NCBI GenBank assembly: GCA_913060695.1
Contig: CAJXUA010000028.1
Span: forward strand, 1-36,162
Reading direction: 5' to 3'
Source: an uncultured Gammaproteobacteria bacterium
GTDB taxonomy: Bacteria; Pseudomonadota; Gammaproteobacteria; Pseudomonadales; Pseudohongiellaceae
Length of the DNA stretch: 36,162 nt
Positions 2,370 to 36,162 of this stretch are shown piece by piece (the stretch's first letter is position 1; each line of letters begins with the position of its first letter). Under the pieces are notes generated by a model. It made no database searches and was not told where the DNA came from. It saw nothing but the letters and a program-made list of their open reading frames with translations. Made by a program: the position numbers and the translations under genes.

Positions 2370-4628
2370 ATGTACAAAGGACGATTCACCTCATTAGTAC
2401 TCTTGCTGCTGACACTGGTATTTGTATCACCGGCTAGCCTTGCGCAGAATACCATTAGCACCACCGAGGTCCGCCCTAGCATGCTGGCATATCGCACAGC
2501 CGGTGAAGCGGGTGTCGAGCTTGACGGCCTCCTCGATGAGGCAGTGTGGGCACAGGCTCAGCCCATTACGGAATTCCGCCAGCAGGAACCGGTGGAAGGG
2601 GGCGTGCCGAGTGAGCGCACTGAGATCCGTGTGCTTTATGACGACAAATTCCTGTATATCGGGGCAATGTTGTACGACTCTGATCCTTCTGGCATCCTCT
2701 CGTACCAGCTACAGCGTGATGCGGGGTTGGGCACCGATGACCGTTTTATGTGGATCATCAGCACCTTCGACGACAACCGCACTGGCTATTTCTTCGAAAC
2801 CAACCCAGCCGGTCTACTAGGTGACGGCCTTATCGAGGGCGGAGGTGGCTTCAACAAACGCTGGAACGGCATCTGGAATATCAGAACCGCAATTCAGGAC
2901 GATGGTTGGTCCGCGGAAATACGCATCCCTTTTTCAACGCTCAACTTCGATCCCGCGCTGGGTGCCTGGGGGATTAATTTCCAGCGCACTATACGCCGCC
3001 ATAACGAAGAGATTCTGTGGAATGGCTGGCGTCGAACCGAAGGGCTATTCCGGCCCATCTATACGGGGGAGCTGCAGGGCCTGAACGGCCTCAGCCAGGG
3101 CCGTGGCATAGAGCTCAAGCCCTTTGTCAATGTATCGACAAGCAGTGGCCCTGCCGCGGGTGCTACCGCTGGCGATGATGCCAAAACAGGCATTGATATT
3201 ACCTATTCACTTACGCCATCCCTGCGCGCGGCACTGACACTGAACACCGACTTTGCCGAGGTAGAGGTCGATAGTCGACAAGTAAACCTTACGCGTTTCC
3301 CAACGCGATTCCCGGAGCAACGTGAGTTCTTTCTTGAAGGCTCAGGGGTGTTCTCATTCAACTGGGCCGATCCCTTCTTCAGTCGCCGCATTGGTCTGGT
3401 GGAAGGACAAGAGGTCCCAATCGACTTTGGTGCGCGCTTGGGCGGCCAAGTGGGGGACTATGAGCTGGGCGTCTATCAGGTGCGAACCGGCGATACCACG
3501 CTAGAGAACGGAGATGGGACTGTGCGTCCCTGGGGCGCCGAGGATTTTACGGTTGCGCGGGTGAAGCGCCGCCTCTTCCAGCAGTCACATGTTGGCATGA
3601 TCTATACACGCAGAGCCTCGGAGGCTGCCCCCGGCGATGTCGATTTGTTTGATCGTCATACAGTGGGGGCAGACTTTGACTTCTATACCTCGCAATTCTT
3701 GGGTCAGTACAACGCTCAATTTGAAGGCTTCGTGCTTTACCATACCGACCCGGTCACCGGTGGTGAACTGAGCGCGTCCGAGCGCAGCTCTCGCGGTGTG
3801 CGCTGGTCATTCCCCAACGACCTGATTCGTGTGCATTCATCACACCGAGAATTCGGTGAAGAGTGGAACCCTGCGGTTGGTTTTGTGGAGAGGCGTGGAT
3901 TTAGGCGTCATCAACCCACACTGACAATTGCGCCGCGCCCCCAGAACTGGAAGTACGTTCGTCAAACTGAACATCAAGTTTACTTCGAATACCTAACGGA
4001 CTTGGACGACCGGCTGTTGACACGCAATGTCGATATCACGCCTCTGCAGGTGAATTTCGAAAGCGGCGATCGTTTCTCCTTTGAAGGCGGGCGTAACTTT
4101 GAACGCTTGGATAGCGCGTTTACCATCTACAGCCGCGGCGACGATGCCATTCACATCCAGCCCGGCGAATATGAATCCGATAAATGGTCTGTCAATTTTA
4201 GTACTGCCGGACGACGCATGCTGTCCGGCAGCGCGAACTACGAACGCTCTGAATTTTGGGGCGGTGACCGTGAAAGCGTCGATCTGGCCGGCACCATTCG
4301 CTCACGTAGAGGCATGTCGCTGACCGCTAACTATCAGCACAACGAGGTGTCTTTGCCACAGGGCGACTTCGACACCAATCTCCTGCGTTTATCTTGGGCC
4401 TGGAATCTGAGCCCCTTCACCGCAATCACAGGCAACGTCCAGTACGATGACCTGTCGAATGTTGTCGGCGTGTACGCCCGCTTACGTTGGATAATTCAGC
4501 CAGGCAATGACGTCTTCCTAGTGTGGAGCAACAACTGGCTGTATGACGATGGCCCACTTCGAGACAGCCGCTTCTCCACACTCTCAAGCGGCGGCGCCCT
4601 AAAATTGAATTACACCTTCCGCTTCTGA
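2370..4628 (+). CDS. DUF5916 outer-membrane protein with CBM9-like N-terminal domain
   Basis: A 752-aa protein with a signal peptide (about residues 1-25, ending SLAQ). Residues about 45-230 match the carbohydrate-binding family 9-like domain that precedes DUF5916 (LDGLLDEAVWAQAQPI, then VLYDDKFLYIGAMLYD). The rest is the long DUF5916 region with alternating hydrophobic strands. The final residues, NYTFRF, end in Phe as beta-barrel outer-membrane proteins do. Location in the outer membrane is inferred; the substrate is unknown. GGAG at 2361-2364 supports the ATG at 2370. The TGA stop overlaps the GATC of repeat R2. Codons 82-99 are duplicated exactly at the left edge of the window. Confidence 0.85.
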   Translation: MYKGRFTSLVLLLLTLVFVSPASLAQNTISTTEVRPSMLAYRTAGEAGVELDGLLDEAVWAQAQPITEFRQQEPVEGGVPSERTEIRVLYDDKFLYIGAMLYDSDPSGILSYQLQRDAGLGTDDRFMWIISTFDDNRTGYFFETNPAGLLGDGLIEGGGGFNKRWNGIWNIRTAIQDDGWSAEIRIPFSTLNFDPALGAWGINFQRTIRRHNEEILWNGWRRTEGLFRPIYTGELQGLNGLSQGRGIELKPFVNVSTSSGPAAGATAGDDAKTGIDITYSLTPSLRAALTLNTDFAEVEVDSRQVNLTRFPTRFPEQREFFLEGSGVFSFNWADPFFSRRIGLVEGQEVPIDFGARLGGQVGDYELGVYQVRTGDTTLENGDGTVRPWGAEDFTVARVKRRLFQQSHVGMIYTRRASEAAPGDVDLFDRHTVGADFDFYTSQFLGQYNAQFEGFVLYHTDPVTGGELSASERSSRGVRWSFPNDLIRVHSSHREFGEEWNPAVGFVERRGFRRHQPTLTIAPRPQNWKYVRQTEHQVYFEYLTDLDDRLLTRNVDITPLQVNFESGDRFSFEGGRNFERLDSAFTIYSRGDDAIHIQPGEYESDKWSVNFSTAGRRMLSGSANYERSEFWGGDRESVDLAGTIRSRRGMSLTANYQHNEVSLPQGDFDTNLLRLSWAWNLSPFTAITGNVQYDDLSNVVGVYARLRWIIQPGNDVFLVWSNNWLYDDGPLRDSRFSTLSSGGALKLNYTFRF

Positions 4629-4737
4629 TCAAAGGGGTCAGAGTAACTTGAAAATTTAAGCTTGTAGTGTCTTAATCAAATTACTCTGACCCCTTTGATA
4701 ATCAAATTACTCTGACCCCTTTGATAACCCCTTTGAT
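4627..4737. repeat. Family A palindromic element R2 with 2.4 right arms
   Basis: The left arm at 4627-4651 (GATCAAAGGGGTCAGAGTAA then CTTGA) overlaps the DUF5916 stop codon. After a 24-nt spacer the right arm appears at 4676-4699, again as a 26-bp tandem unit at 4702-4725, and a third time as only its tip, CCCCTTTGAT, at 4728-4737. Confidence 0.95.
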
Positions 4738-4755
4738 AATTCTTGGAGAAACAGC

Positions 4756-5202
4756 ATGTTTAGGCTCATCGTCGCTTTCGCTCTTTCCAGTGTTTTACTC
4801 GCCTGTCAACCCAATCTACCCACGGCTAGTGCCGCCGAAGCAGACCAACTGCCCGCTGCTCCCGAATATCTGAATCCTAACCCACGTGCGCCTTATTCCG
4901 AGGCTGTTCGCTATGGTGGTTTAATCTTTCTGGCCGGCAAAACTGGTGGTGCTGGCGAATCCGGTGTGCAGCCCGAAACACGGCGCGCCTTAGAATCCAT
5001 AAAGGACGCACTGGAGCGCTTCGGCTCTTCGATGGATCGCGTTTTGAAATGCACGGTATTTCTGGTCGACATGGCCGAATGGGGCGCCATGAACGAGGTT
5101 TACGCCGAGTATTTTCCGGTGAACAAGCCAGCCCGCACAGCCGTCGGCATCAGCTTGGGTGGCGACACCCGTGTGGAGATTGAGTGTATTGCGGCTGAAT
5201 AG
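4756..5202 (+). CDS. RidA/YjgF-family protein with a lipoprotein signal
   Basis: A 148-aa protein. Residues about 38-147 are a RidA (YjgF/YER057c/UK114) domain. The conserved arginine is in PARTAV (R127) and the conserved glutamate in VEIECIA (E141), matching the 2-aminoacrylate-binding residues of RidA. Unlike typical cytosolic RidA proteins it begins with a hydrophobic segment and a lipobox, LLAC (Cys17), predicting lipid anchoring outside the cytoplasm. Imine deamination is therefore possible but unproven here. GGAG 8 nt upstream supports the ATG. The gene sits between repeat R2 and a 207-nt intergenic stretch. Confidence 0.85.
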   Translation: MFRLIVAFALSSVLLACQPNLPTASAAEADQLPAAPEYLNPNPRAPYSEAVRYGGLIFLAGKTGGAGESGVQPETRRALESIKDALERFGSSMDRVLKCTVFLVDMAEWGAMNEVYAEYFPVNKPARTAVGISLGGDTRVEIECIAAE

Positions 5203-5409
5203 GGTCGATAGATGGGGTGTTATTCTCACTACTAATTCGATGTTTACGCTAACTAGATAGCTTGGGTTGAAGCCAGCTATAGAGTGGATTTAAGCGTAGA
5301 TTAAGGGCTGTAGCGCGATTTGCTGGGGCTGGCAAAGTTTTTGCTAACTCTTCTAGTGAGTACAAAACATTACAAACTAGAAGAGACCTAGCGCAGGAGA
5401 ACCCCATAG

Positions 5410-6231
5410 ATGGATGCCAGTAAGAGCAAACAGCAACAAAGTGCCATGGACCGCCGTTACAGCAGCGACGAAGTGGCCGAAATTATTCGCCTGAGCCTGC
5501 AGGATGAGAGTCGCAGGAGAAGCGACAACTCCGTTGACTACGCAGAGCTGCTGGCAATTGCCAAAGACGTAGGGGTAGATAGTGATCGAATTGATCATGC
5601 CGTGCATCTACTGGAAGAGGAGCTGCAAACTAGAGACAAAGAGCGAGCCTTGTGGGCGCGCTTCAAGGGGCATGCTCAACTCTTCGCAGCCATCAATCTT
5701 TTATTAATCACCGTCAACCTGCTTAGTGGCTCTACTAGTTTCTGGGCCATGTACGTCACATTCGGTTGGGGCCTGTTCCTGCTGGGCCACTATGCCGGGC
5801 TGCGCTATGCGCCTCAGTTTGTAGAGATGGCCATGCAGCGCACGCGCAATTTGATGGACTATAAACAGCAAGCAATGCCAGACAGCGAAGACCGAGTGCT
5901 CATTAGCACCAGCGACTCTATGGGCATGACTGAAACCTCTGGCATGCTCAGTCTAGAAGAAGGCAAACTGTTGCTGGAATATCAGACCATTGATGCAATA
6001 CTGGGCGTATTAAAATCCGGCATTAAGGTGGTTGAGATCTCACTGAGCGAATTGTCTTCGGCAAACGTCGAGCAAAAACTGTGGAGTGCCGAGCTGGTAT
6101 TGCAGGGCAAGAACATGCGCGTATTTAGCAATGTGCCAGGCGCCAGGCAAGGGCAGTTGCGCGCAAAGCTCAATCGGCAATCCATCATTGCTGCCAAGCA
6201 ACTCATTGAACAGATCAATAAATGGCAATAA
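5410..6231 (+). CDS. 2TM-domain membrane protein
   Basis: A 273-aa protein. The N-terminal 75 residues are charged and helical (SSDEVAEIIRLSLQ). They are followed by two closely spaced hydrophobic segments (about 92-108 and 112-128) separated by a short turn, the pattern of the 2TM domain family. The C-terminal 130 residues are soluble and resemble a PH-like or LytTR-associated beta-rich region, without a firm match. An AGGAG at 5396-5400 supports the ATG. No enzymatic motif is visible; a sensory or regulatory membrane role is only a guess. The TAA stop lies inside the left tip of repeat R3. Confidence 0.6.
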   Translation: MDASKSKQQQSAMDRRYSSDEVAEIIRLSLQDESRRRSDNSVDYAELLAIAKDVGVDSDRIDHAVHLLEEELQTRDKERALWARFKGHAQLFAAINLLLITVNLLSGSTSFWAMYVTFGWGLFLLGHYAGLRYAPQFVEMAMQRTRNLMDYKQQAMPDSEDRVLISTSDSMGMTETSGMLSLEEGKLLLEYQTIDAILGVLKSGIKVVEISLSELSSANVEQKLWSAELVLQGKNMRVFSNVPGARQGQLRAKLNRQSIIAAKQLIEQINKWQ

Positions 6232-6358
6232 ATGGGGTCAGTGTTAATTTAATTTAGGCAGTAATTACTTCGTCGATAAATTTGAGGCGCTTTGTGTTTG
6301 AAGATTAGCGGAAGGTAAAGCGAGAAAGTCTAAGAAAATGTACACTGACCCCATTTAT
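6228..6358. repeat. Family B palindromic element R3
   Basis: A 131-bp element bounded by a perfect 17-bp inverted repeat, ATAAATGGGGTCAGTGT at 6228-6244 and its complement at 6342-6358. About 97 bp of unrelated sequence lies between. It contains the stop codon of the 2TM gene on the left and an ATG (6338) in the right arm. Confidence 0.9.
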
Positions 6359-6361
6359 AAC

Positions 6362-6814: not shown

Positions 6815-6879
6815 ATAGATAAGGTCAATTGCAATTTTTCTGGCTGCTGACCGTTTCGTCGTCAAGGTAGATCCATTTT

Positions 6880-7830: not shown

Positions 7831-9303
7831 ATGAAAAATGTCCGAGCGTTACTAATCCTGCTAATTTCATCGCTGAGTGCTGTATGCATAGCGGCAGATT
7901 TTGAGGGCGGGGCTGAAGTGTCTTGGCTAGGTTCACTTTCAATCGCAGAAAGGTATCAGCTTGATTCTGAGCAATTGTCTGAAACCAGAGAGTTCTTTTT
8001 ATCATTGCCCCAGAGCTATGATAACTCGCAACACCATTATTCCGTGTTGTATCTGCTAGATGCAGATCAGAACATGGAGCATGCCGTTGCTAGCGCTAGA
8101 ATGTTGGCGCAATGGCGCGGTATTCCCGAGTTGATAATAGTAGGAATTCCCAGTACCAATCGACTTCGCGATTTTACCCCTACGCAAGATGTAAACTATT
8201 CGGAACAGAGTGGAGGTGGTGAGCCTTTCATGGCTTTCCTAAAAAAAGAGCTCATTCCCTACATCGATGCCAATTACAGAACTCATCCTTTTCGAATTCT
8301 ATCCGGACATTCTTTATCTGGCTTGTTAGCGGCAAACGAGCTGATGGGCGCAAGTAGTCTCTTCAATGCCTATATCATCACTGCCCCTTCTTTGTGGTGG
8401 AACGGTTTTGAAATACTGGATATTGCAGAGCAAAACTTCAAGCAAAACTTCAAGCAAAATCAACATAAAAGCAAAACGGCGTATTTTGGTATTGGTGAGC
8501 TCGACGGTTATGGTATGAAGCAGGAGCTTCTACGCTATATCGCTTCCATTGAGGCATCGGGCAACGACCAAGTTCGTTTCGAACATAGGGAGTATAGCGG
8601 GGAGGGCCATATGTCAGCCCCAATGTCAGTTACCTATGATGGTTTGCTTTCTGTTTTCTCGGATATTCCCTATCTCAAAGAGAGCTGGAGCAACTTTAGT
8701 AGCGATGCGTTCATAGCACGGGAGGAAAGTTTAGGAGCCAAGTATGGCAGCACCGCTATGCAAACGTCAGAGATCTATGTCGGGCTGGCAAATTATCTGC
8801 TAGAGAATGCTAACTTCAATGGCGCTGTTACGGTGTTCACTATTAATGCAGAAAGAAACCCGGAGTATGCACCCTATTACGATTGGCTCGCTAACGCCTA
8901 TGTCTTGGCAGGTAATGTAGAAAAAGCCATTGAAGTATATCGAACGGCGTATGACATTAGTTCCACAGCGATCAATGGGCAAGGCAATGCAAACCAATAT
9001 CTCGAACAAATAGAGTTGCTTCGCCACCCAATTGAGCTAAGTGAAGAGGATGCCCGGAGCCTAGTGGGGTGTTATGGAGAGGGAGACGATAGTTACGCCG
9101 TCTATTTGGAAAATGGCCGGCTCTACAGTCGGCATAGCGATTGGCAAGATTTTGAACTCTTTGCCAAAACCACAAAACAGTTTTTCATGAGGGTTCCACC
9201 AGGGCATCAATTTAGTTTTGTAGTGGAAGACTCGGTAACTACACTGCTTCTCGACGTATATGGCACTCAATCTAGGTTGCAGGCTGCACAGGGTGGATGT
9301 TAG
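7831..9303 (+). CDS. Exported alpha/beta-hydrolase (esterase D family) with TPR-like tail
   Basis: A 490-aa protein with a signal peptide (cleavage near CIAAD). Residues about 40-290 are a putative esterase domain of the esterase D/enterochelin esterase type. The nucleophile motif is SGHSLSG (Ser161), with VLYLLDADQNM before it and a likely catalytic His in GEGHMSAP. Residues about 325-390 look like TPR helices (FNAVTVFTINAERNP-type spacing, then VEKAIEVYRTAYD). AAGGGG at 7819 supports the ATG. An internal 12-bp tandem duplication (8431-8454) gives the repeated KQNF residues. Substrate is unknown. Confidence 0.8.
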   Translation: MKNVRALLILLISSLSAVCIAADFEGGAEVSWLGSLSIAERYQLDSEQLSETREFFLSLPQSYDNSQHHYSVLYLLDADQNMEHAVASARMLAQWRGIPELIIVGIPSTNRLRDFTPTQDVNYSEQSGGGEPFMAFLKKELIPYIDANYRTHPFRILSGHSLSGLLAANELMGASSLFNAYIITAPSLWWNGFEILDIAEQNFKQNFKQNQHKSKTAYFGIGELDGYGMKQELLRYIASIEASGNDQVRFEHREYSGEGHMSAPMSVTYDGLLSVFSDIPYLKESWSNFSSDAFIAREESLGAKYGSTAMQTSEIYVGLANYLLENANFNGAVTVFTINAERNPEYAPYYDWLANAYVLAGNVEKAIEVYRTAYDISSTAINGQGNANQYLEQIELLRHPIELSEEDARSLVGCYGEGDDSYAVYLENGRLYSRHSDWQDFELFAKTTKQFFMRVPPGHQFSFVVEDSVTTLLLDVYGTQSRLQAAQGGC

Positions 9304-9330
9304 TAATAATATACCGGAGCACCACTATGC

Positions 9331-10236
9331 TTAATCCCAGTTAGCTTTCTCAGCGATATTTTTAGAGAAAAAATCGATAAAAGCATTTACCTTTGGGCTT
9401 AAGTACCGCCGTTGTGGGTAAAGCAAATAAATAGAAACTTCTAATATTCTATAGTCATCAAAGAGAACCTGTAACTTTCCTTTGTTGACTTCATTGGCAA
9501 CCATAAAAGTTGGCATTCTGCAGATACCCATGTCACTAAGCAAGGCTTCCTTTAACGCCAAACTACTATTTATCTGCAAGCTACTGCTTAACTGAACCAG
9601 AACATCCTCGCCGTTAATATCTCTAAACTTCCATTCAAGAGCATGGTCTTGATGCTGATAGCTAAGAATATTGTGGCTCGTTAGTTGACTTGGATATGCG
9701 GGCTTACCGTATTGTTTAAGGTACTTAGGCGTTGCGACTATCGCATGCTTACAAGAAGCTATTTTCTTCGCTATCAGTGTAGAGTCAGTTAGTTCGGCAG
9801 TAATGCGCACAGAGATATCGAACCCCTCTTCGATCACATCTACTTGCCGATCATCGAGATGTAAATCTATTATAATCTCTGGGTATTGATGCCGAAAATT
9901 TGCTAGCGCAGGTGCAATGTACAATACCCCAAAAGACATCGGCGCATTGATCTTCAAAACTCCACGCGGCTTATCTTGTAATCGTGTTACCTCACTTTCA
10001 GCATCTTCAATTTCTTGAAGGCCTAGTCGTGTGTGCTCATAAAAAACTTTTCCTACCTCAGTCAGGCTTAATTTTCGGGTAGTTCGGTTCAACAATCGCG
10101 CATTAAGCCGATCTTCAAGCCGGCTAATGTATTTGCTCACCACCGATCGAGAAAGTTTAAGACGCTCTGCTGCCTTGGTGAAACTACCACTTTGTACTAC
10201 CTGAACGAATACGACGATATCGGTGAGCTTGTCCAT
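9331..10236 (-). CDS. LysR-family transcriptional regulator
   Basis: A 301-aa protein. Residues 1-60 form the winged helix-turn-helix of LysR regulators (FVQVVQSGSFTKAAERLKLS, then VSKYISRLEDRLNARLLNRT), and residues about 90-290 the effector-binding domain, beginning GVLKINAPMSFG. It resembles the AaeR/DhcR-like branch. It is transcribed away from the VOC-EamA-nitroreductase run that starts 137 bases upstream, and it most likely controls that run and itself, as is usual for divergent LysR genes. The inducer is not predictable from sequence. Confidence 0.92.
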   Translation of the reverse strand: MDKLTDIVVFVQVVQSGSFTKAAERLKLSRSVVSKYISRLEDRLNARLLNRTTRKLSLTEVGKVFYEHTRLGLQEIEDAESEVTRLQDKPRGVLKINAPMSFGVLYIAPALANFRHQYPEIIIDLHLDDRQVDVIEEGFDISVRITAELTDSTLIAKKIASCKHAIVATPKYLKQYGKPAYPSQLTSHNILSYQHQDHALEWKFRDINGEDVLVQLSSSLQINSSLALKEALLSDMGICRMPTFMVANEVNKGKLQVLFDDYRILEVSIYLLYPQRRYLSPKVNAFIDFFSKNIAEKANWD

Positions 10237-10373
10237 AATTAGTAAAGATACGTGAACAGTGTTGTTCGAATATAGCTAATTATCTTTCCAATGTTAACTA
10301 TTATCCTTCTTCTCGCAGTAATTAAGGAAATTTCGGCCAAATTGAATCTGGCAGGGCAAGTTGGAGAGAGGTT
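10237..10373. promoter_or_regulatory. Divergent promoter region between lysR and the VOC operon
   Basis: AT-rich 137-nt spacer that must carry both promoters. AAAGATA (10244-10250) and TATCTTT (10281-10287) form a 7-bp inverted repeat 30 nt apart that could be part of an operator. No confident LysR T-N11-A site was singled out. Confidence 0.35.
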
Positions 10374-10820
10374 ATGAGAGATCTAAAAGGGCTAGATCAC
10401 ATCGGAATAAGAGTAAGCGATTTCGAGAGTTCAATTGAATTTTATAAGGCATTCGGCTTCGAGCTACAGAGAGCTGACATCGAAGAGGGCGTAAGAGTAT
10501 TGGCTCATAAACAAGGACCAACTCTGAATCTACTCGACTCTACCACTAAGACTAGGGCAATACATAACGTCTTGATGGACGAAGAGACTAAACATACGGG
10601 TTATACCCACATCGCGCTTATTGTTCAGGACATTGCTAAGACAGTTGATTATATCAATAACCTAGGCCATGAAATTACAGAAGGGCCAGTTAGCTTTAGT
10701 GACGGAAAGACCTCTATCTTCATCCGTGATCCTGACAGAAATGTCATAGAATTTACGCAGTCTACACAAACGGTGCAATCTGCTACCTACAGTGTCGAAA
10801 ACAGTGGCGGTGAAATATGA
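10374..10820 (+). CDS. VOC-family (glyoxalase/bleomycin-resistance fold) protein
   Basis: A 148-aa protein with two beta-alpha-beta-beta-beta halves. Expected metal ligands are H9 (LDHIGIRVSD), H79 (YTHIALIVQD) and E126 (VIEFTQ). The family covers glyoxalase I, dioxygenases and thiol transferases to fosfomycin; the exact reaction cannot be chosen. GGAGAGAGG lies just upstream of the ATG. Its end overlaps the next start by 4 nt (ATGA), indicating translational coupling to the EamA transporter. Confidence 0.88.
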   Translation: MRDLKGLDHIGIRVSDFESSIEFYKAFGFELQRADIEEGVRVLAHKQGPTLNLLDSTTKTRAIHNVLMDEETKHTGYTHIALIVQDIAKTVDYINNLGHEITEGPVSFSDGKTSIFIRDPDRNVIEFTQSTQTVQSATYSVENSGGEI

Positions 10821-11701
10821 AAGCGCTACTTCTTCTGATACTTTCTGGTTCACTGACAGCTGCACTATACATGCTAAGGAAATTAGCAGGCGCGGAGTCG
10901 ATTCCCGTAACACTATTCTTATTCTGGCAATTATTCGGCAGTGCTCTGGTTGTTTTGACCGTCTCAATTAGGTCTCGACATTTTCCAATCTGGAATATGC
11001 AACACATACGGTACTATCTGATTGGTGGGCTACTGGGCACAACTATTCCATTCATTCTGGTGTTCGTGGTTTTAGAGCACCTACAGGTTGGGTTGGTTGG
11101 ATTGCTAACAGCGCTTTCACCTATTGCAACTTATTTCCTAGCAAGAATCATAGGCTATGAGCAGGCAAGTATGCTGCGCATTGTCGGATTGATTGTCGGG
11201 CTAGCGGGAGTTGCCTTTCTCATCACTTCTGGCGAATCGATTGATCAATCGACCAACTGGATATTCATTCTTCTGGCGTTAATGATTCCTCTGACACTAG
11301 CCGTTAGCAATATTTATCGTAGCCGTTATTGGCCTGTTGGAAGCGAAGCGATTTCCATAGTTATGGGCATGCTAACGGTTAATGGGGTTCTTCTGCTGAT
11401 TGTGAATGTGTGGCTTGGAAATTTTCACGAGAATATGTTCGAGAACACCCAAGTGCTCCCTTTGATAGTGGTTCTATCGCTATTAGCTGGTGCAGCTTAC
11501 ATAAGTTCTTTTCTGCTTCTAAAAGAGGGTGGTCCTGTTTACTTAAGCCAAATGGGCTATGTCATCACTGTTGTCACTATATTAGCCGGAATTCTATTTT
11601 GGGATGAGCAATACCATTCGAATGACCTAATTAGCATAGCGCTAGTCTTTGGTGGAGTTCTGATGACAACTTGGTCGCAGAAGAAGAATGTTGTTTCGTA
11701 A
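10817..11701 (+). CDS. EamA/DMT-superfamily transporter
   Basis: A 294-aa membrane protein with about ten hydrophobic helices arranged as two EamA halves, the length and layout of drug/metabolite exporters of the RhaT/EamA type. Motifs such as GLLTALSPIATYFLARI (helix 4) and the matching segment near the C-terminus (GYVITVVTILAGILFWDE) are typical. It starts inside the end of the VOC gene, so the two are co-expressed. A role in exporting the compound modified by its neighbours is inferred from context only. Confidence 0.88.
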   Translation: MKALLLLILSGSLTAALYMLRKLAGAESIPVTLFLFWQLFGSALVVLTVSIRSRHFPIWNMQHIRYYLIGGLLGTTIPFILVFVVLEHLQVGLVGLLTALSPIATYFLARIIGYEQASMLRIVGLIVGLAGVAFLITSGESIDQSTNWIFILLALMIPLTLAVSNIYRSRYWPVGSEAISIVMGMLTVNGVLLLIVNVWLGNFHENMFENTQVLPLIVVLSLLAGAAYISSFLLLKEGGPVYLSQMGYVITVVTILAGILFWDEQYHSNDLISIALVFGGVLMTTWSQKKNVVS

Positions 11702-11732
11702 AAAATACGTAAAAACAGGAGGAGAGTTAGAG

Positions 11733-12359
11733 ATGAGTGTAATAGAAGCGCTTAACTGGCGGTATGCCGTAAGAGAATTCTCAAATGAAAAAATCAGTGA
11801 TGAATCATTAAAAACACTTTTGGACGCAACTAGACTCGCCGCTACATCTTACGGTCTGCAGCCCTATAGACTAATGGTTATTGACGATAAGGAGTTACGT
11901 AAAAAGTTGTTGGAGTTCTCTTTTGGTCAGAAGAAAGTACTCTACTGCTCACACTTGGTTGTATTCGCAGCGCAAACAAATATTGGCGATTCTTTGGTTG
12001 ATAATTACATTCGAAAAGTTTCTAACGTCAGGAAAATTCCGATTACAGAGCTAAGAGATTATGCAGATCATATAAAAGCGGCACTCAGTAATAAGAGTGA
12101 TAAACAGAAAAGAGAATGGGCCCATCAACAAGCCTATATTGCCTTAGGCACCCTGCTAACTAGTGCGGCATTGTTGGGAATTGATACCTGCCCGATGGGT
12201 GGAATTGACGCGCGTGCCTATGATGACACGCTCAATTTTAAATCGATTAATCTGGAAACATCGATGGTCTGTGCTTTAGGTGTGCGTGCTCAACAAGATA
12301 AAAGTGCAGGGCTGAAGAAAGTTCGCTATGACGAATCTGAAATGCTTGTAACGATCTAA
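11733..12359 (+). CDS. Nitroreductase-family NAD(P)H-dependent oxidoreductase
   Basis: A 208-aa flavoprotein of the NfsB-like nitroreductase family. The N-terminal FMN-phosphate motif is seen in LNWRYAVREF, followed by LDATRLAATSYGLQP and, later, LLGIDTCPMGG. A longer frame opens at 11688 inside the transporter gene, but GGAGGAGAG at 11718-11726 places the true start at the ATG at 11733. It reduces nitro groups, quinones or enones with NAD(P)H in the cytoplasm; the physiological substrate is unknown. It belongs to the operon controlled by the divergent LysR gene. Confidence 0.9.
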   Translation: MSVIEALNWRYAVREFSNEKISDESLKTLLDATRLAATSYGLQPYRLMVIDDKELRKKLLEFSFGQKKVLYCSHLVVFAAQTNIGDSLVDNYIRKVSNVRKIPITELRDYADHIKAALSNKSDKQKREWAHQQAYIALGTLLTSAALLGIDTCPMGGIDARAYDDTLNFKSINLETSMVCALGVRAQQDKSAGLKKVRYDESEMLVTI

Positions 12360-13399: not shown

Positions 13400-14101
13400 A
13401 TGACAATTAAATCCTACAGAGAAGTTAACCCGTTATTTTCTGCAAGAGTTGCTGGCTTGCTTTATCTTATGATCATTGTATTTGGAGTTTCATCTGAGTT
13501 ATTGGTTCGAGCTCCTAATATTGATTTTACTGACCCAGTAGCAACAGCCAGAAATATCTCGAACCATGAATCCTTATTCCGGTTTGGGTTTCTGGCTGAC
13601 ACCATAATGTTAATGTGTGATATAGCACTAGCTGTTGTCTTTTATGTTCTATTTAGGCCAGTAAACGAGACCCTTTCGCTGCTAGCCGCTGCATTTCGAT
13701 TAACACAGGCTGTAATCCTTAGCGTAAATTTGCTGTTTTACTACTCTGCAATTCTTTTGCTAAGTAAATGGAGCTATTTTTCCTTACAAAATGATGAGAA
13801 TATTCTAGCCATGGCTACATTTGTTCTGGATATCCATAGTCACGGTTATGACCTTGGCTTGATCTTCTTTTCATTATCCAACTTCATACTTGCTTATTTG
13901 ATTATCAAATCGCAGTATATTCCACGCATTTTTGGATATGGTCTTTTAGCAGCGGCTATAGTCTATTTGGCAGGGAGCTATACGCGTTTTATGTTGCCAA
14001 GTTATATCGACACTATGCAAGTAATCTATTTGCTACCCTTGATAGCAGAGCTCGCATTGAGTGTTTACTTATTGTCCAAAGGATTAAGGTATATACAGTA
14101 G
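13400..14101 (+). CDS. DUF4386 multi-spanning membrane protein
   Basis: A 233-aa membrane protein with about six hydrophobic helices. The opening SARVAGLLYLMIIVFGVSSE and the later LADTIMLMCDIALAVVFYVLF resemble the DUF4386 family. An in-frame start at 13265 lies deep inside the cyclase gene, so the ATG at 13400, 25 nt after the cyclase stop, is the likely start, although its Shine-Dalgarno site is weak. It could be the last gene of the LysR-controlled run. Function of the family is unknown. Confidence 0.75.
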   Translation: MTIKSYREVNPLFSARVAGLLYLMIIVFGVSSELLVRAPNIDFTDPVATARNISNHESLFRFGFLADTIMLMCDIALAVVFYVLFRPVNETLSLLAAAFRLTQAVILSVNLLFYYSAILLLSKWSYFSLQNDENILAMATFVLDIHSHGYDLGLIFFSLSNFILAYLIIKSQYIPRIFGYGLLAAAIVYLAGSYTRFMLPSYIDTMQVIYLLPLIAELALSVYLLSKGLRYIQ

Positions 14102-14216: not shown

Positions 14217-14241
14217 GATCAAAGGGGTCAGAGTAATTTGA
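14217..14241. repeat. Family A half element R4 (left arm only)
   Basis: A complete left arm, GATCAAAGGGGTCAGAGTAA then TTTGA, with no right arm before the histidine phosphatase start at 14267. It lies 115 nt after the DUF4386 stop, one of only two loci not abutting an annotated stop codon. Confidence 0.9.
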
Positions 14242-14266
14242 AAACTAGTCAATTAGTGCCTGCCGC

Positions 14267-14854
14267 ATGATTGTGCTCCATTTGCTTCGACATGCGCAGC
14301 AGGATTGGGATAGAGAGACGCCAGACGTGGACTGGCCGTTGACGCCAACGGGGCGGAAGCAGGCCGCAGATCTCGTGGATGAGTTGGCAAAGCTACGCCC
14401 AGATAGTTTGTGGTGCAGCGAGACTCAACGTGCCTTCCAGACAATTCAACCCTATGCTGAGTGCTCGGGACTAACAGTGAGGCGGCTCCGTGACCTAGGC
14501 GAGCGGAGACTCACATGGCCTCTGCCCGCCATGGATGAGATGCAGGAGCATTATCGTAGGGGGTGGAAAGACCTTGATTATACCCTGGTGAATGGAGAAT
14601 CCAACCGCGAGGGGCAAGCCCGCTTCATGGAGGCACTCCATAAAATCGTCGAGCAAGAGAGTGTGGAGGAGCAGAACCGCTGCGTAGTAGTGTGTGCTCA
14701 CGGCAATGTCATTGCCTTAGCCGAGCATGCCGCTACTGGCACCTTTGGCGACACTAGCCTCGATTTCTGTGAGTTTCGTACGCTTACCTTGGGTCCGAAC
14801 GGATGGCAGTTGCTTGCTACCAAAGCCACGGAGGGATCAAAGGGGTCAGAGTAA
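14267..14854 (+). CDS. Histidine phosphatase-family protein with repeat-encoded C-terminus
   Basis: A 195-aa cytoplasmic phosphatase of the phosphoglycerate mutase-like superfamily. The catalytic motif is LLRHAQQ (R8, H9), with R55 in SETQRA, E79 in DLGERR and the second histidine in CAHGN (H145), so all core residues are present. These enzymes form a phosphohistidine and act on small phosphoesters or phosphoproteins. The last codons, SKGSE and TAA, are encoded by the left arm of repeat R5, so the original C-terminus seems to have been replaced or extended by a few residues. No clear ribosome site precedes the ATG. Confidence 0.88.
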   Translation: MIVLHLLRHAQQDWDRETPDVDWPLTPTGRKQAADLVDELAKLRPDSLWCSETQRAFQTIQPYAECSGLTVRRLRDLGERRLTWPLPAMDEMQEHYRRGWKDLDYTLVNGESNREGQARFMEALHKIVEQESVEEQNRCVVVCAHGNVIALAEHAATGTFGDTSLDFCEFRTLTLGPNGWQLLATKATEGSKGSE

Positions 14855-14920
14855 CTTGAAAGTTTGCTTTCGCGGGATTTAGATCAAATTACTCTTACCC
14901 CTTTGATCTACCCCTTTAAT
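14835..14920. repeat. Family A palindromic element R5
   Basis: The left arm at 14835-14859 overlaps the end of the phosphatase gene and supplies its stop. The right arm at 14884-14908 has one change (CTTACC for CTGACC). An extra tip copy, CCCCTTTAAT, follows at 14911-14920. Confidence 0.92.
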
Positions 14921-15555: not shown

Positions 15556-15609
15556 GATCAAAGGGGTCAGAGTAGTTTGAAAGGTTCAAATTACTCTGAC
15601 CCCTTTGAT
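15556..15609. repeat. Family A palindromic element R6 (compact hairpin)
   Basis: Arms at 15556-15580 and 15586-15609 are separated by only 5 nt, giving a tight 54-nt hairpin. It begins 8 nt after the methyltransferase stop and ends 14 nt before the small ORF at 15624. Confidence 0.95.
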
Positions 15610-15623
15610 TTAGGGAGTAATCA

Positions 15624-16904: not shown

Positions 16905-16992
16905 GATCAAAGGGGTCAGAGTAACTTGATCGCTCACTTTCAATCGAAACGCGATCAGATTACTCTGACCCCTTTGATCGGCCCCGTTGATC
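16905..16992. repeat. Family A palindromic element R7
   Basis: Extended inverted repeat: 16905-16933 pairs with 16951-16979, including an extra CGC/GCG beyond the standard arm, with one mismatch. An altered tip copy, CCCCGTTGATC, follows at 16982-16992. It starts 2 nt after the aminotransferase stop. Confidence 0.95.
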
Positions 16993-17008
16993 CTTGAGAG
17001 GAGTTGTT

Positions 17009-17635
17009 ATGAGTAAGTCAGACAAGTTTTGGGATAGCAAGGCAGAGGCATATGCCAAGAGCAAGATCTCAGATGAAGATACCTATCAGCGCAAACTCGC
17101 CGAGACCCAAGCATTTTTTACTCCCGATATGCGTATCGTAGAGTTTGGCTGCGGCACTGGAGCTACGGCTGTGCAGCACGCGCCACACGTGCAACACATA
17201 GACGCAGTGGATGTATCCGAGAAGATGCTCGAGATAGGTCGAAAAAGGGCCGCAGAGGCGAATGTCGACAATATTAGCTTCACTCAAGGCACGTTGGCGG
17301 AATTCAATGCAGAGGCAGGGAGCGTTGATGCTGTACTCGGTTTGAACGTGATTCATCTAGTTCCAAATAGACATGAGGTGATTGCGGAGGTCGCTAGAAT
17401 TCTCAAGCCTGGTGGCATATTTGTTAGTAGCACTGGCTGTCTCGGCAATTCCTACCTTCGTTTCATCAAGCTGCTCGTACCTCTAGGCAAATTTCTGGGG
17501 ATTATGCCAGATGTGTTTATCATGACCGAGTCTGAGCTAGCGCAAGAGATCCGCAACGCCGGCTTCACAATCGAGACGCAGTGGCACCACGGCTCCAAGG
17601 GTATTGGCGTCTTCATCATTGCGCGTAGAACATAG
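17009..17635 (+). CDS. Class I SAM-dependent methyltransferase
   Basis: A 208-aa methyltransferase unrelated in detail to the one at 14945. Motif I is IVEFGCGTG (about residues 43-51), then IDAVDVSEKMLEI and the motif RILKPGGIFVSST characteristic of UbiE/Methyltransf_11-like small-molecule methyltransferases. GAGAGGA at 16996-17002 supports the ATG at 17009 rather than the upstream in-frame TTG. It is bounded by repeats R7 and R8, with a 5-nt gap between its stop and R8. Confidence 0.9.
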   Translation: MSKSDKFWDSKAEAYAKSKISDEDTYQRKLAETQAFFTPDMRIVEFGCGTGATAVQHAPHVQHIDAVDVSEKMLEIGRKRAAEANVDNISFTQGTLAEFNAEAGSVDAVLGLNVIHLVPNRHEVIAEVARILKPGGIFVSSTGCLGNSYLRFIKLLVPLGKFLGIMPDVFIMTESELAQEIRNAGFTIETQWHHGSKGIGVFIIARRT

Positions 17636-17640
17636 CGCGA

Positions 17641-17699
17641 ATCAAAGGGGTCAGAGTAATTTGAAAGAACACCGATCAAATTACTCTGACCCCTTTGAT
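17641..17699. repeat. Family A palindromic element R8
   Basis: A perfect 24-bp inverted repeat, 17641-17664 with 17676-17699, and an 11-nt loop. It lies 5 nt after the methyltransferase stop. Confidence 0.96.
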
Positions 17700-17708
17700 T
17701 CAAGGCAG

Positions 17709-20327: not shown

Positions 20328-20409
20328 GATCAAAGGGGTCAGAGTAATTTGAAAGCTCCGCGATCAAGTTACTCTGACCCCTTTGAAAATTACTCTGACC
20401 CCTTTGATC
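20328..20409. repeat. Family A element R9 between convergent genes
   Basis: The left arm at 20328-20352 starts directly after the permease TAG. Right arms occur twice, at 20364-20386 and 20387-20409. The last one overlaps the stop codon of the prolyl oligopeptidase gene on the other strand, so the element is shared by two converging gene ends. Confidence 0.95.
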
Positions 20410-29335: not shown

Positions 29336-29367
29336 ATGCTTCAGATTTCTTTAGAAAAGTATTTCAT

Positions 29368-30009: not shown

Positions 30010-30057
30010 ACTGCGCGGGTCTAAATGGTTCCGGATATTTTCAATGAGCGAGCGGTG

Positions 30058-31314: not shown

Positions 31315-31451
31315 TGTGAGATAGTAGATCTTGCGCAAGCTTCTAGAAATTGTATTGGGGTCCTGCATCCTGATGGAAAGTTATCAGCGAATATTTTGAC
31401 AAATTGTAGTCGTAGAAAAGGGGTTAAGACATGCCAACGAAAGGACCTGAA

Positions 31452-31895: not shown

Positions 31896-31898
31896 AAG

Positions 31899-31922
31899 CA
31901 AACTACTCTGACCCCTTTGATC
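31899..31922. repeat. Family A half element R10 (right arm only)
   Basis: A single right arm, CAAACTACTCTGACCCCTTT then GATC, without a left arm. It fills almost the whole gap between the hydrolase stop (31895) and the GrpB start (31926). Confidence 0.92.
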
Positions 31923-31925
31923 CGC

Positions 31926-32468: not shown

Positions 32469-32597
32469 TAGATACCTTTTATTCTTCAGATAAGCAGAAT
32501 ATGATAAGTAGGATTAAGTTACTCCCCACAACAATAAGATTAAGCCCTCACGCCGCAATGGCTCTAGGGTCATTGGTCTGTTACGAGCGGTGCTTCA

Positions 32598-33206: not shown

Positions 33207-33275
33207 CATCTGTGCCGCTTCCTTTTAGTTGAGTTGCGTCGACTAGCAGAAGCTTACAATGTTTGAGGACTAAGT

Positions 33276-33797
33276 TTGCAAATTCGCAGAATTCAAGTAG
33301 ACGATGTTCCTGATTTTCTGGCGCTGTGGGCGAAGGTGTATTCAGAAGGCGCCTTTTTGTCGAAGGGTCCTCCTCCTGAGAGCCTAGTGCTGCAAGTCGT
33401 CGAGCGGGTAGTGAAAGAGCAGATTCCCAATTTCGTAGCCATAGATGTTCAAGAGCTAGTTGGGGCGGTAGAGGTATTTCCGGGCTCGCTGTGTGGGTTC
33501 AGCGACGAGAACGCCGATCGGCGAGGCTATCTGGGGATTCAGCTCGCTTTGGTATATAGGGGCAAGGGGATCGGCCGTAAGCTCATGCAAGCCGCAATCG
33601 ACGACGCTAAGCGTTATGGGTTCGAGGTGATAGAGCTTACAGTCTTCCAGTCTAATTTCGCAGCAATCGAGCTGTACGAGAAGCTCGGTTTTAAGCTTAC
33701 GGGCCTTGGCAAAAGTGTAATATTGCCTGTTGGGCTCGCCACAACGGAGCAACATATGGCACTCAGTCTCAAAAATGTCTCAAAAATTGAGAAATAA
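33276..33797 (+). CDS. GNAT-family N-acetyltransferase
   Basis: A 173-aa protein with the acetyl-CoA-binding motif A in YLGIQLALVYRGKGIGRKLM (R95-G100) and the following helix and strand (YGFEVIELTVFQSNFAAIEL, then YEKLGFK). These are the hallmark segments of GNAT acetyltransferases acting on small amines or proteins in the cytoplasm. The start is a TTG at 33276 with GAGGA 7 nt upstream; no nearer ATG would keep the N-terminal strand. Confidence 0.9.
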   Translation: MQIRRIQVDDVPDFLALWAKVYSEGAFLSKGPPPESLVLQVVERVVKEQIPNFVAIDVQELVGAVEVFPGSLCGFSDENADRRGYLGIQLALVYRGKGIGRKLMQAAIDDAKRYGFEVIELTVFQSNFAAIELYEKLGFKLTGLGKSVILPVGLATTEQHMALSLKNVSKIEK

Positions 33798-34149
33798 TTC
33801 AGCCAAGCTCTGCAGGAGTCTTTTGTGGGCAATATATGCCTTGAAGCCCTTAGATTCGGGTCTTTAGGTGCTTTGGCTTAGGGCTAAAGAGCGATCAAAA
33901 CCAGCAGTTAAACTACTCCACGCCGTTTTATCAATTTACAAGCTAAGTTAACAACGTATTATGGCTGTCTAATTAGACAGTTATGATTGGTTTCAGTCGC
34001 CCTAGAAAGCGGGCATACTGAGCAATCTGCCGTTTGTAGTGTCCTTTGAAAGGATCGCTATTAGGGTTTTAGAAAGTTTCAGCTTTGTATTCGAACTGGT
34101 GGATTCGTATGCAATTTTTTATATCTCACCAAAACTATGAGTAAAGAAA
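33798..34149. promoter_or_regulatory. Long leader region of the cold-shock gene
   Basis: About 350 bases with no gene. Long 5' leaders are common for cspA-type genes, where RNA structure senses temperature. Visible elements are a 16-bp palindrome at 33965-33980 and a short hairpin TCCTTTGAAAGGA at 34042-34054. No match to the E. coli cold box was recognised. Promoter positions are not assigned. Confidence 0.4.
33965..33980. promoter_or_regulatory. Perfect 16-bp palindrome CTGTCTAATTAGACAG
   Basis: CTGTCTAATTAGACAG is a perfect inverted repeat 170 bases upstream of the cold-shock start. Its form suits a dimeric repressor operator, for example of the TetR or MarR type. No such regulator is encoded nearby. 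Confidence 0.4.
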
Positions 34150-34356
34150 ATGAGTAATGGTACAGTTAAGTGGTTCAATGCCGACAAAGGTTTCGGTTTT
34201 ATTACACCTGAAGATGGCGGCAAAGATTTGTTTGTTCATCACTCAGAAATTCAAGCCGGCGGTGGTTACGCAACATTGAACGAAGGCCAGGCTGTTGAAT
34301 TCGAAGTTGGCCAAGGTCAGAAAGGACCATGTGCGAACAAAGTAGTTGCTGTTTAA
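34150..34356 (+). CDS. CspA-family cold-shock protein
   Basis: A 68-aa single cold-shock domain, the usual length. RNP-1 KGFGFI and RNP-2 LFVHHS are intact, as is the start GTVKWFN. It binds single-stranded RNA and DNA as a chaperone in the cytoplasm. The ribosome site is weak. A six-codon frame (34137-34157) overlaps the start and might interfere with or couple initiation, but is probably chance. Confidence 0.95.
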
Positions 34357-34668
34357 ACGGCACTAAATAACAAGTCAGGCAGGCAGTTGGCCTCGCCAGC
34401 GCTGCTTGATGCGTTATTAGTCTCTTTGAATGCAATCCCCATGAGTATCAAAACCTCTGCGGCTAAGCCTACGACGGTTATCTTCTTTTTTGCGTTGTTC
34501 CCTCAGTTTTATCTGCTCCAAATCCTGTACTACCTTTAATTATTTTCCTAAGCTTAACTTAGCTTCTATGGGATGGTTTATTCTATGCTTTTAGGAATGA
34601 AGGTTAATACGTAGAGCTAATTACTTATTAGTGCCACTTGGCGAGTTTTTCTGTTGGAGTGTTGTTAA
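34357..34668. other. Non-coding stretch upstream of the beta-lactamase
   Basis: About 310 bases with no convincing gene, no family A/B repeat and no recognised terminator or promoter. A 32-codon frame at 34441-34539 has no ribosome site. GGAG at 34656-34659 belongs to the beta-lactamase start. Confidence 0.4.
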
Positions 34669-35577
34669 TTGAAGTCATTACTGAAAGCCCTGAAACAATC
34701 GCGGGGTTTAAACGCTGCGGTTGTTCTTACTTATATCTTCTTTGTTAGCGCATCTGTAGCGCAAGATGGCGACCTAATTGAGACCATCACTCAGATCGAG
34801 GCTCAGCTAAACGCTCGTATAGGCGTAGCGGCATACTCCGTCGGCTCCGATACGCGCTGGCAGTACCATGCTGATGATCGCTTTCCGATGTCCAGCACAT
34901 TCAAAACACTGGCCTGTGCAGCATTGCTTCATCGTGTTGATTCTAATCAGGAAAGTCTTGATCGAGTAGTTAAAATAGAGGCAAAAGACATTGTGTCTTA
35001 CTCGCCTATCACGGAGACGCGGCTTGCTGATGCAGGAATGACTCTAGCCGAACTCTGCGATGCATCGATAACGGTCAGCGACAATACCGCGGGTAACTTG
35101 GTTCTAGGCGCCATCGATGGCCCCCAAGGTCTTACGCGATTTATGCGCTCCATAGGCGACAATGTCACACGCCTAGACCGCATGGAAACGCAACTCAATG
35201 AAGGCCTGCCAGGGGACCTGCGCGATACCACTACCCCGAACGCAATGGCCAAAGCAATGGAGAACTTGGTTCTGGGCGATGTGTTGACTGCTTCGTCTCG
35301 AGCGCAATTGGAGACATGGTTGCGAGGTGACACAGTGGCCGATGCACTGTTCAGAGCGGGCATTCCCATAAGCTGGGAGATCGGCGATAAGACCGGCGCG
35401 GGTGGTTATGGCTCTCGCTCTATTGCCGCGATCATGTGGCCTCCCTCTGGCAACCCAATTGTTGCCACGGTCTACATCACAGAGACCGAGGCCTCATTCG
35501 ATGATCGAAACTCGGCAATAGCACAAATCGGCGCCGCGATAGCGAAAGAATATGCCCGATCAAAGGGGTCAGAGTAA
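34669..35577 (+). CDS. Class A beta-lactamase
   Basis: A 302-aa precursor of an Ambler class A serine beta-lactamase, exported to the periplasm (signal to about SVAQD). All active-site motifs are present: SSTFK (Ser76, Lys79; S70-xx-K73 in Ambler numbering), SDN (137-139), ETQLN (Glu173, the E166 equivalent) and KTG (241-243). The stretch GDLRDTTTPNAMA resembles the CARB/PSE branch, but that branch has RSG where this has KTG. There is no cysteine just before the active serine. The start is a TTG with GGAG 9 nt upstream. The last residues SKGSE and the stop are encoded by repeat R11. Confidence 0.93.
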   Translation: MKSLLKALKQSRGLNAAVVLTYIFFVSASVAQDGDLIETITQIEAQLNARIGVAAYSVGSDTRWQYHADDRFPMSSTFKTLACAALLHRVDSNQESLDRVVKIEAKDIVSYSPITETRLADAGMTLAELCDASITVSDNTAGNLVLGAIDGPQGLTRFMRSIGDNVTRLDRMETQLNEGLPGDLRDTTTPNAMAKAMENLVLGDVLTASSRAQLETWLRGDTVADALFRAGIPISWEIGDKTGAGGYGSRSIAAIMWPPSGNPIVATVYITETEASFDDRNSAIAQIGAAIAKEYARSKGSE

Positions 35578-35623
35578 CTTGGTCGATCAGGTTACCCTGA
35601 CCCCTTTGATCGCTGCCCCGTTG
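35558..35623. repeat. Family A palindromic element R11
   Basis: The left arm at 35558-35582 lies over the 3' end of the beta-lactamase gene and ends in TTGG rather than TTGA. The right arm at 35587-35611 differs at two bases. A partial tip, CCCCGTTG, follows at 35616-35623. Confidence 0.93.
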
Positions 35624-35664
35624 GTTGACCGTTTGATAAGTCCTTTCAAAGCGAATATAAAAGT

Positions 35665-36096
35665 ATGATGAGCATAGCTATAGCCAGTGATCATGCAGGT
35701 TTCGAGTACAAATCAGCTATTAAATCCCATCTCGAAGGCAAGGGGATCGAAGTTGTTGATTTGGGGACCAACTCGGTTGAGCCCGTAGATTATCCGCAGT
35801 TCGTACGAGCGGCGGCACAATCCGTAGCGCAGGGGCGTCAGACCCTTGGCATTATCTTGGGTGGAAGTGGAAACGAAGCCATTGTTGCCAATAGGCTGCG
35901 CGGAATTCGTTGCGCAGTGGTATGGAACGAGCAAACGGCTCGCCTGGCCAAAGAGCACGGCGACTGCAATATGATCGGCATAGGCCAGCGACAGATGTCG
36001 AAGGAGTTAGCTATTGCCATTGTAGATGTATGGTTGAATGCGACATTCAAAGGCGGGCGTCATCAGAGGCGCATTGACCAAATCGACGAGTTCTAG
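35665..36096 (+). CDS. rpiB: RpiB/LacA/LacB-family sugar-phosphate isomerase
   Basis: A 143-aa isomerase. The N-terminal IAIASDHAGFEYK and the HGDCNMIGIGQR segment identify the RpiB family, which interconverts ribose 5-phosphate and ribulose 5-phosphate or related sugars. The loop GGSGNEAIVANR resembles the mycobacterial form, which has no catalytic cysteine and uses a glutamate; here the loop is one residue shorter. Two adjacent ATGs (35665, 35668) are both possible starts with only a weak ribosome site. Its TAG is directly followed by repeat R12. Confidence 0.88.
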   Translation: MMSIAIASDHAGFEYKSAIKSHLEGKGIEVVDLGTNSVEPVDYPQFVRAAAQSVAQGRQTLGIILGGSGNEAIVANRLRGIRCAVVWNEQTARLAKEHGDCNMIGIGQRQMSKELAIAIVDVWLNATFKGGRHQRRIDQIDEF

Positions 36097-36162
36097 GATC
36101 AAAGGGGTTATCAAAGGGGTCAGAGTAACTTGATCGATCAAGTTACTCTGACCCCTTTGATA
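36097..36162. repeat. Family A element R12: perfect 54-bp palindrome at the window end
   Basis: An extra tip copy, GATCAAAGGGG (36097-36107), precedes a perfect, loopless palindrome from 36109 to 36162 (27 + 27 bases) centred on GATCGATC. It starts at the first base after the rpiB stop and runs to the last base of the window. Confidence 0.95.

What the first reader, a model, noticed from the sequence alone, without database searches (positions are those of the whole stretch)
4627..36162. Dispersed palindromic repeats punctuate single genes across the window
Eleven family A loci (R0, R2, R4-R12) share the arms GATCAAAGGGGTCAGAGTAA and TTACTCTGACCCCTTTGATC, with unrelated 0-50 nt loops. Eight lie between 4.6 and 20.4 kb and then at the 31.9-36.2 kb end. 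The layout, with hairpins between genes and variable loops, is like REP/BIME elements, which are moved by RAYT (TnpA_REP, Y1 HUH) transposases. No such gene is in the window, so they are non-autonomous here. Genes between neighbouring elements are unrelated accessory functions, as in a cassette array.
Basis: partly seen in the sequence, partly recalled or inferred. Interest (0 to 1): 0.75.

Follow-up and report, generated by a model that had tools for sequence, protein, structure and literature searches.

The report
Transposase-linked hairpin repeats between accessory genes
Short DNA palindromes dispersed in this bacterium's genome, very probably spread by a relative of a known hairpin-cutting transposase that the same genome encodes elsewhere, sit mostly just after the ends of accessory genes, and some mark the edges of genes present in one sister species and absent in another.

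Summary
In detail: ten loci with the arm GGGGTCAGAGTAA (eight inverted pairs, two single arms) lie in the window, far above chance; the genome has 132 exact cores. It is not a canonical GTAG-type REP; the core fits GGGGWSAS of TIR-associated tyrosine transposases (TIRYT/TIRtron; PMC3733652, PMC6006769). New detail: in 58 transposase loci that have such arms, the arm is itself a hairpin, with a loop of about 13 nt that holds the core and a co-varying stem. Arm families are lineage-bound. The window element at 4634 has an empty site in G001. 'Single genes' is true for 6 of 9 intervals. Element gaps are more often synteny breaks (31 of 45 against 69 of 169), but not clearly so in the array contigs alone (p=0.18). 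A cassette mechanism is not shown. New members of a known kind, with a structural refinement.

The parts
4627..4738 (+). Family A element: inverted arm pair plus a third arm and a partial arm, between a DUF5916 gene and an L-PSP gene; no element in the same gap of G001
14217..14243 (+). single family A arm, upstream of the His_Phos_1 ORF
14835..14908 (+). family A inverted pair, 34-nt loop; its TAA is the stop codon of ORF 14267-14854
15556..15610 (+). family A inverted pair, 15-nt loop; an element also lies after the orthologous gene in G012
16905..16979 (+). family A inverted pair, 35-nt loop; an element also lies after the orthologous gene in G012
17640..17700 (+). family A inverted pair, 21-nt loop, after the methyltransferase ORF 16994-17635; the related gene in G001 (68%) has a C-family hairpin on its 5' side, none after its stop
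20328..20409 (+). family A inverted pair plus third arm, between convergent MacB-like and peptidase S9 genes
31896..31922 (-). single family A arm (1 mismatch), between SnoaL-like and GrpB genes
35558..35611 (+). family A inverted pair; its TAA is the stop codon of the class A beta-lactamase ORF
36097..36162 (+). family A inverted pair with a partial arm, at the contig end, after an RpiB-like gene
2253..2354 (+). family B arms (GGGGTCAGTGTAC), two direct and one inverted
6227..6360 (+). family B arms, widely spaced pair

Best explanation
The palindromes are non-autonomous copies of the terminal inverted repeats of a TIR-associated Y1 tyrosine transposase (TIRYT, a relative of RAYT/TnpA-REP) encoded on another contig of the same genome. 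One arm is a small hairpin (7-nt stem sides, 13-nt loop GGGGTCAGAGTAA); two arms in inverted order make the long palindromes. Inferred steps: the enzyme recognises the arm as a single-strand hairpin, cuts it and joins it elsewhere as in IS200/IS605 chemistry, so arms or pairs spread into intergenic DNA, mostly just after stop codons. The repeats then act as short recombination seeds, so genes lying between two elements are sometimes deleted or inserted with junctions inside the arms, which gives the cassette-like look of an accessory island.
For: Shown: transposase C36:13501-14226 lies between arms at 13466(+) and 14285(-); the 86%-identical enzyme in G012 lies between arms at C16:47170(+) and 47996(-). 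Y1_Tnp 60.2 bits (cut-off 23); NCBIfam REP_Tyr_transpos 73.8 (cut-off 80, so just under) against IS200 25.4 (cut-off 55); both histidines of the HUH motif and Y---NP are invariant in the 8 aligned enzymes (Y---NP as class-2 signature). Of the best 80 related transposase loci, 51 have a GGGGTCAG core within 300 bp and 31 an inverted flanking pair; 125 cores in 46.8 kb near, 78 in 493 kb far. Stem pairing peaks at loop length 13: 4.88 of 7 against 2.23-3.74 at the 15 other lengths (95 arms); one arm per locus, 58 loci: 4.88 against shuffled mean 3.37, maximum 4.05 of 2000. Lineage-bound families: A core 132 in G000 and 99 in G012; C arm 32 in G001, 27 in G003, 0 in the other 12; B arm 15 in G000, 0 in the other 13. 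Element edge to stop codon: median 10 nt (n=68); to start codon 51 (n=44). No element in G001 in the gap of window 4634; family B in G000 but family A in G012 in one orthologous gap. By my reading the G012 junctions for two genes that it lacks there lie inside arms.
Against: No cleavage or transposition was tested. 29 of 80 transposase loci have no core within 300 bp. The core was my search term, so its constancy in the arms is partly by construction; only the stem is tested, and the shuffles do not correct for relatedness. The enzyme falls just under NCBIfam's RAYT cut-off. 12 of 16 element-bearing conserved gaps have elements in both G000 and G012, so turnover is slow; of the other four, one is a diverged palindrome, not an empty site, and the flanks of two others are not clean. 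There is one clean empty site against an outgroup, too few to fix a target. The link with synteny breaks is inflated by tight co-directional gaps, which carry no elements: without them the comparison is 31 of 45 against 55 of 123; in the array contigs alone it is 19 of 28 against 36 of 70, p=0.18; comparisons with G001 have too few cases and show nothing significant.
Confidence: 0.85

Rival explanations
1. A cassette system: the moving unit is one gene plus one arm or hairpin, moved as single-stranded DNA by the transposase between existing elements, as integrase moves cassettes between attC sites.
For: Reading by eye, C28+C36+C33 against G012 C16 show 14 variable gene runs; 6 have family A elements at both edges in G000 (two of these rest on inferred contig joins), 4 at one edge, 4 at none. 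A gene with its 3' hairpin (C12:25957-26865) sits 6-7 kb away in G012. The C36:5854 gene has 62-64% relatives in G001 and G003 beside a different gene conserved between those two, with no core in the stretches held.
Against: 12 of the 28 run edges have no element; G012 has what looks by eye like a degenerate remnant at the old C12 place; no same-genome duplicates were flagged for the array genes among the stretches held; repeat-mediated deletion explains the same junctions; G001 lacks an element in a gap whose two genes are the same.
Confidence: 0.1
2. The hairpins are transcription terminators or mRNA-end stabilisers kept by selection, not mobile.
For: They sit a median 10 nt from stop codons and are rarer in divergent gaps: 5 of 56 elements against 56 of 294 gaps; one pair of orthologous palindromes differs yet stays palindromic (case 4).
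Against: Only 2 of 14 terminator-like hits in 4-23 kb overlap an element, and the total does not exceed shuffles (14 against mean 17.2); families are lineage-bound and shared with a transposase's ends. Could be a side effect.
Confidence: 0.05
3. Decayed integron (attC) array.
For: Accessory genes of the kind seen in integron arrays (recalled); of six genomes searched, two relatives, G005 and G013, have an integron integrase over the cut-off.
Against: No match over the cut-off in G000 or G012; their weaker matches are of a kind that also rings in all 14 control genomes. The arms belong to the Y1 transposase.
Confidence: 0.01

Closest known systems
TIRYT / TIRtron and their TIR families (PMC3733652: passages read; PMC6006769: sections 12 and 27 and further passages read)
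   Same: RAYT-like Y1 enzyme flanked by inverted repeats with GGGGWSAS; repeats also elsewhere in the genome as singles, dimers or groups
   Different: The C36 and G012 enzymes have no HTH match in Pfam at E 0.1, while the 20 TIRYTs placed in subclass 2.1 are said to include one; the 2018 paper reports no REP-like sequences for subclass 2.1, here the arm is a co-varying hairpin; concentration in an accessory island is not mentioned in the parts I read. I did not place this enzyme in a subclass.
REP / REPIN / BIME with RAYT (TnpA-REP)
   Same: cognate class-2-type Y1 enzyme, inverted pairs, intergenic, downstream of genes, family tied to its enzyme
   Different: no conserved GT[AG]G foot on the side tabulated; the shared core is in the loop
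IS200/IS605 transposons (IS608, ISDra2; recalled and PMC6006769 passages)
   Same: Y1 HUH enzyme, hairpin ends
   Different: the enzyme scores below NCBIfam's IS200 cut-off (25.4 against 55) and lies beside the same neighbour gene in two species
Integron gene cassettes (recalled)
   Same: one gene then a folded repeat near the stop codon
   Different: no integrase over the cut-off in G000 or G012, mixed orientation and many genes without a repeat; attC not searched

Membership tests
TIRYT/TIRtron | Y1 HUH transposase with class-2 Y---NP motif | tested here: met
   motif
TIRYT/TIRtron | gene flanked by inverted repeats with GGGGWSAS | tested here: met
   GGGGTCAG inverted on both sides in G000 and G012 and in 31 of 80 loci
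TIRYT/TIRtron | same repeats dispersed as singles, dimers or groups | tested here: met
   75 loci at up to 1 mismatch in the G000 stretches held; a few may be family B arms one base away, such as C24:27126
TIRYT/TIRtron | C-terminal HTH domain (common, not taken as defining) | tested here: not met
   no Pfam HTH at E 0.1 in the C36 or G012 enzyme
canonical REP/REPIN | 5' GT[AG]G tetranucleotide at hairpin foot | tested here: not met
   in 201 exact CAAAGGGGTCAGAGTAA arms of the G000 and G012 stretches the bases outside the 7-nt stem side (positions -7 to -4) show no consensus; the foot on the other side of the arm was not tabulated
canonical REP/REPIN | cognate RAYT in the genome | tested here: inconclusive
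   REP_Tyr_transpos 73.8 bits, cut-off 80
canonical REP/REPIN | cleavage by cognate enzyme | not testable with these tools
   needs biochemistry
integron cassette array | integron integrase (TIGR02249) | tested here: not met
   none over cut-off in G000 or G012
integron cassette array | attC sites | not tested
   no attC model run
MITE | target-site duplication | tested here: inconclusive
   none visible to me at the one clean empty site

The most novel reading that the evidence does not exclude
A Y1 HUH transposase with a shared-loop, variable-stem hairpin code maintains an integron-like gene-cassette island without an integrase: single genes are captured, moved and lost between its hairpins, and sister lineages run parallel islands with different hairpin codes in a corresponding chromosomal region.
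Probability: 0.12. Interest if true: 0.8.

Novelty: new member of a known kind. Interest (0 to 1): 0.42.

Why it matters
It gives a RAYT-like clade a concrete, testable recognition unit (a hairpin whose stem changes between enzyme lineages around a shared loop core), where the published survey reports no REP-like sequences for the subclass that holds most TIRYTs. It also gives a set of related genomes with different element families in homologous island regions, in which one can ask whether such repeats only decorate gene ends or help to shuffle accessory genes.

Tried and rejected
Integron: six genomes searched for the integrase, none over the cut-off in G000 or G012. Rfam: no match in the window at gathering thresholds. 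Terminators: not enriched in 4-23 kb. PDB by sequence: no match. Breakpoint test with G001 and G003: few cases, no signal. Target site: at one clean gap the element follows TGAT, which overlaps the gene's stop codon; too few to claim. Literature: 'REP-associated tyrosine transposase' with 'gene cassette' gave 2 papers, listing only; RAYT/REPIN searches gave listings; the bare core gave 965 papers, 15 listed, none used; the core with 'transposase' and 'palindrom' gave 2 listings on other subjects by their titles; 'TIRYT' gave 2 papers, both read in part. I found no report of arrays of this kind in those searches; the library lacks most subscription papers. I did not run structure prediction, the count of structure pairs or an attC search; co-variation was computed in my scripts. 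Gene calls come from a simple greedy ORF caller of mine, so gap counts carry its errors. The 14 variable runs were counted by eye. An earlier count said that the G001 relative of the methyltransferase gene is followed by a hairpin; one search shows that the hairpin is on its 5' side, and the report uses that. The loci include two overlapping stretches of one contig (L163, L188).
Full report
WHAT IS THERE. The window is contig C28 of a 3.73 Mb genome in 47 contigs. GGGGTCAGAGTAA with up to 2 mismatches occurs 26 times against 0.47 expected. At 1 mismatch and a 130-bp joining distance there are ten family A loci: eight inverted pairs and two single arms. A second family, B, is at 2260-2347 and 6234-6352. 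The eight pairs fold strongly as single strands (z -6.9 to -14.3); the one single arm tested does not. Genes between are mostly unrelated accessory functions by Pfam. One gene per interval is true for 6 of 9 intervals. Two ORFs of the window (14267-14854 and the beta-lactamase 34669-35577) end in the TAA of an arm.

GENOME. There are 132 exact cores; the reversed-pattern control gives 1. In the stretches I hold I count 75 loci at up to 1 mismatch, 29 of them in C28, C36 and C33; a few of the 75 may be family B arms one base away (C24:27126 is one). The window ends in an element and C36 begins and ends in one, so the assembly probably broke there. Genes of C28, C33, C36, C45, C12, C43 and C5 have relatives in one 80-kb stretch of G001 contig C19, so these contigs probably form one accessory island (inference).

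THE ENZYME. PF01797 has four matches in the genome, none in the window. The C36 copy lies between arms at 13466(+) and 14285(-); the G012 copy, 86% identical, lies beside the same 372-aa neighbour and between arms likewise. Other enzymes of the genus (45-49% identical to the C36 enzyme) carry other arms around the same core.

ARM STRUCTURE. From those 80 and eight loci of the genus I took the nearest arm in the expected orientation on each side where there was one: 95 arms from 58 loci of 88. The core GGGGTCAG was the search term, so its constancy is given; what is tested is the pairing of the 7 bases on each side. It peaks at loop length 13 (4.88 of 7; 2.23-3.74 at the other 15 lengths, of which 12 is the highest because some arms have a 12-nt loop; 58 of 95 with at least 5 pairs at 13). 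With one arm per locus, 2000 shuffles reach at most 4.05. The four innermost pairs have both A-T and T-A forms in numbers, two of them C-G as well. So the arm is a hairpin with a stem that changes on both sides. In the parts of the two papers that I read, TIRs of TIRYTs are described as unrelated to REPs (though some include self-complementary tracts), and subclass 2.1 as lacking REP-like sequences. I did not place this enzyme in a subclass.

FAMILIES ARE LINEAGE-BOUND. A core: 132 in G000, 99 in G012. The core also occurs in G003, G008, G009, G011 and G013 (11-56 copies). In G008, G009 and G013 the transposase flanks that I saw have another stem, so those counts may be of the loop only. In G003 at least one is a true A-like arm (C66:9590) although its best enzyme is 49% identical to the C36 one, so A is not confined to G000 and G012. 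Outside the genus the core was found a few times in 7 of the 24 genomes searched. C arm: 32 in G001, 27 in G003, 0 in 12 others. B arm: 15 in G000, 0 in 13 others.

INSERTION. Of 114 gene adjacencies conserved between G000 and G012 in the stretches held, 98 have no element, 12 have one in both, 2 only in G000, 2 only in G012. Base by base: C43:17186 is a plain absence in G012; C24:28435 and C25:37382 have diverged flanks; C12:38533 is a diverged but still palindromic element, not an absence. The window element at 4634 is present in G012 and absent in G001, where the same two genes are 59 bp apart; of 20 adjacencies compared with G001 or G003 this is the only one with an element in G000. One gap (C24:27107) holds family B in G000 and family A in G012. 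Elements lie a median 10 nt from stop codons (68 neighbours) and 51 from start codons (44); 5 of 56 are in divergent gaps against 56 of 294 gaps (63 elements in 12 contigs, 7 dropped for want of two usable neighbours).

ARRAY AND GENE TURNOVER. Reading by eye, C28+C36+C33 against G012 C16 show 14 variable runs: 6 with elements at both edges in G000 (two through inferred contig joins), 4 at one edge, 4 at none; that is 16 of 28 edges. For C36:5854 and C36:12934 the G012 junction lies inside an arm by my reading, as expected of recombination between arms or of insertion at an arm. Overall 31 of 45 element gaps are broken against 69 of 169 others (p=0.0012); 46 of those 169 are tight co-directional gaps without elements, and without them the comparison is 31 of 45 against 55 of 123. 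From G012's side it is 23 of 37 against 64 of 164 (p=0.016). In C28, C36, C33, C12 and C5 alone it is 19 of 28 against 36 of 70 (p=0.18). With other pairs: G001 to G003 3 of 4 against 20 of 41, G003 to G001 4 of 6 against 19 of 39, G001 to G012 3 of 3 against 34 of 47, G001 to G000 2 of 2 against 32 of 44, none significant. So the link is modest and partly regional. No same-genome duplicate was flagged for the genes of C28, C36 and the first 12 kb of C33 among the stretches held.

READING. These are TIR elements of a TIRYT-like enzyme, probably spread by it in trans, and many are old enough to be shared by two sister species. They probably act as seeds for gene loss and sometimes gain. A dedicated cassette mechanism is possible but not shown. 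Shown: the shared arms, the enzyme, the co-varying hairpins, lineage-bound families, presence and absence. Inferred: cutting, joining, the single-strand route, the recombination role.

Noticed in passing
window 2253-2354, 6227-6360; G000 C1, C3, C17, C24, C25, C27, C47: Family B arms (15 exact copies, only in this genome of 14). None of the four Y1 transposase loci of the genome shows B arms beside it in what I printed, so its enzyme may be lost, acting in trans, or missed.
   Followed up: partly
G000:C23:42938-43384: A Y1 transposase relative with an internal TAG and arms GGGGTCAGGTTCGTTGATC nearby: a probable relic.
   Followed up: no
G000:C10:74594-75217 and the 323-372-aa matches: A long Y1 relative (25-27% identical), one match in each of 12 of the 14 genomes of the genus; no core printed in L011, L054, L056, L057 and one in L059. 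Looks vertically kept.
   Followed up: no
L116 (G003:C22) 8909-11868: A C-family transposase with C arms lies near the ortholog (89%) of the gene that neighbours the A-family transposase in G000 and G012, while the enzymes are about 50% identical: replacement or fast divergence in one neighbourhood.
   Followed up: partly
G000:C12:38533 against G012:C18:257005: Orthologous palindromes that differ in the arm but stay self-complementary in both species.
   Followed up: partly
window 34669-35577: Class A beta-lactamase (NCBIfam bla_class_A 317.8 bits, cut-off 200), its stop codon inside an element arm.
   Followed up: partly
G005:C29:35656-36597, G013:C25:465-1406: Integron integrases over the cut-off in two species of the genus; attC sites were not looked for.
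   Followed up: no
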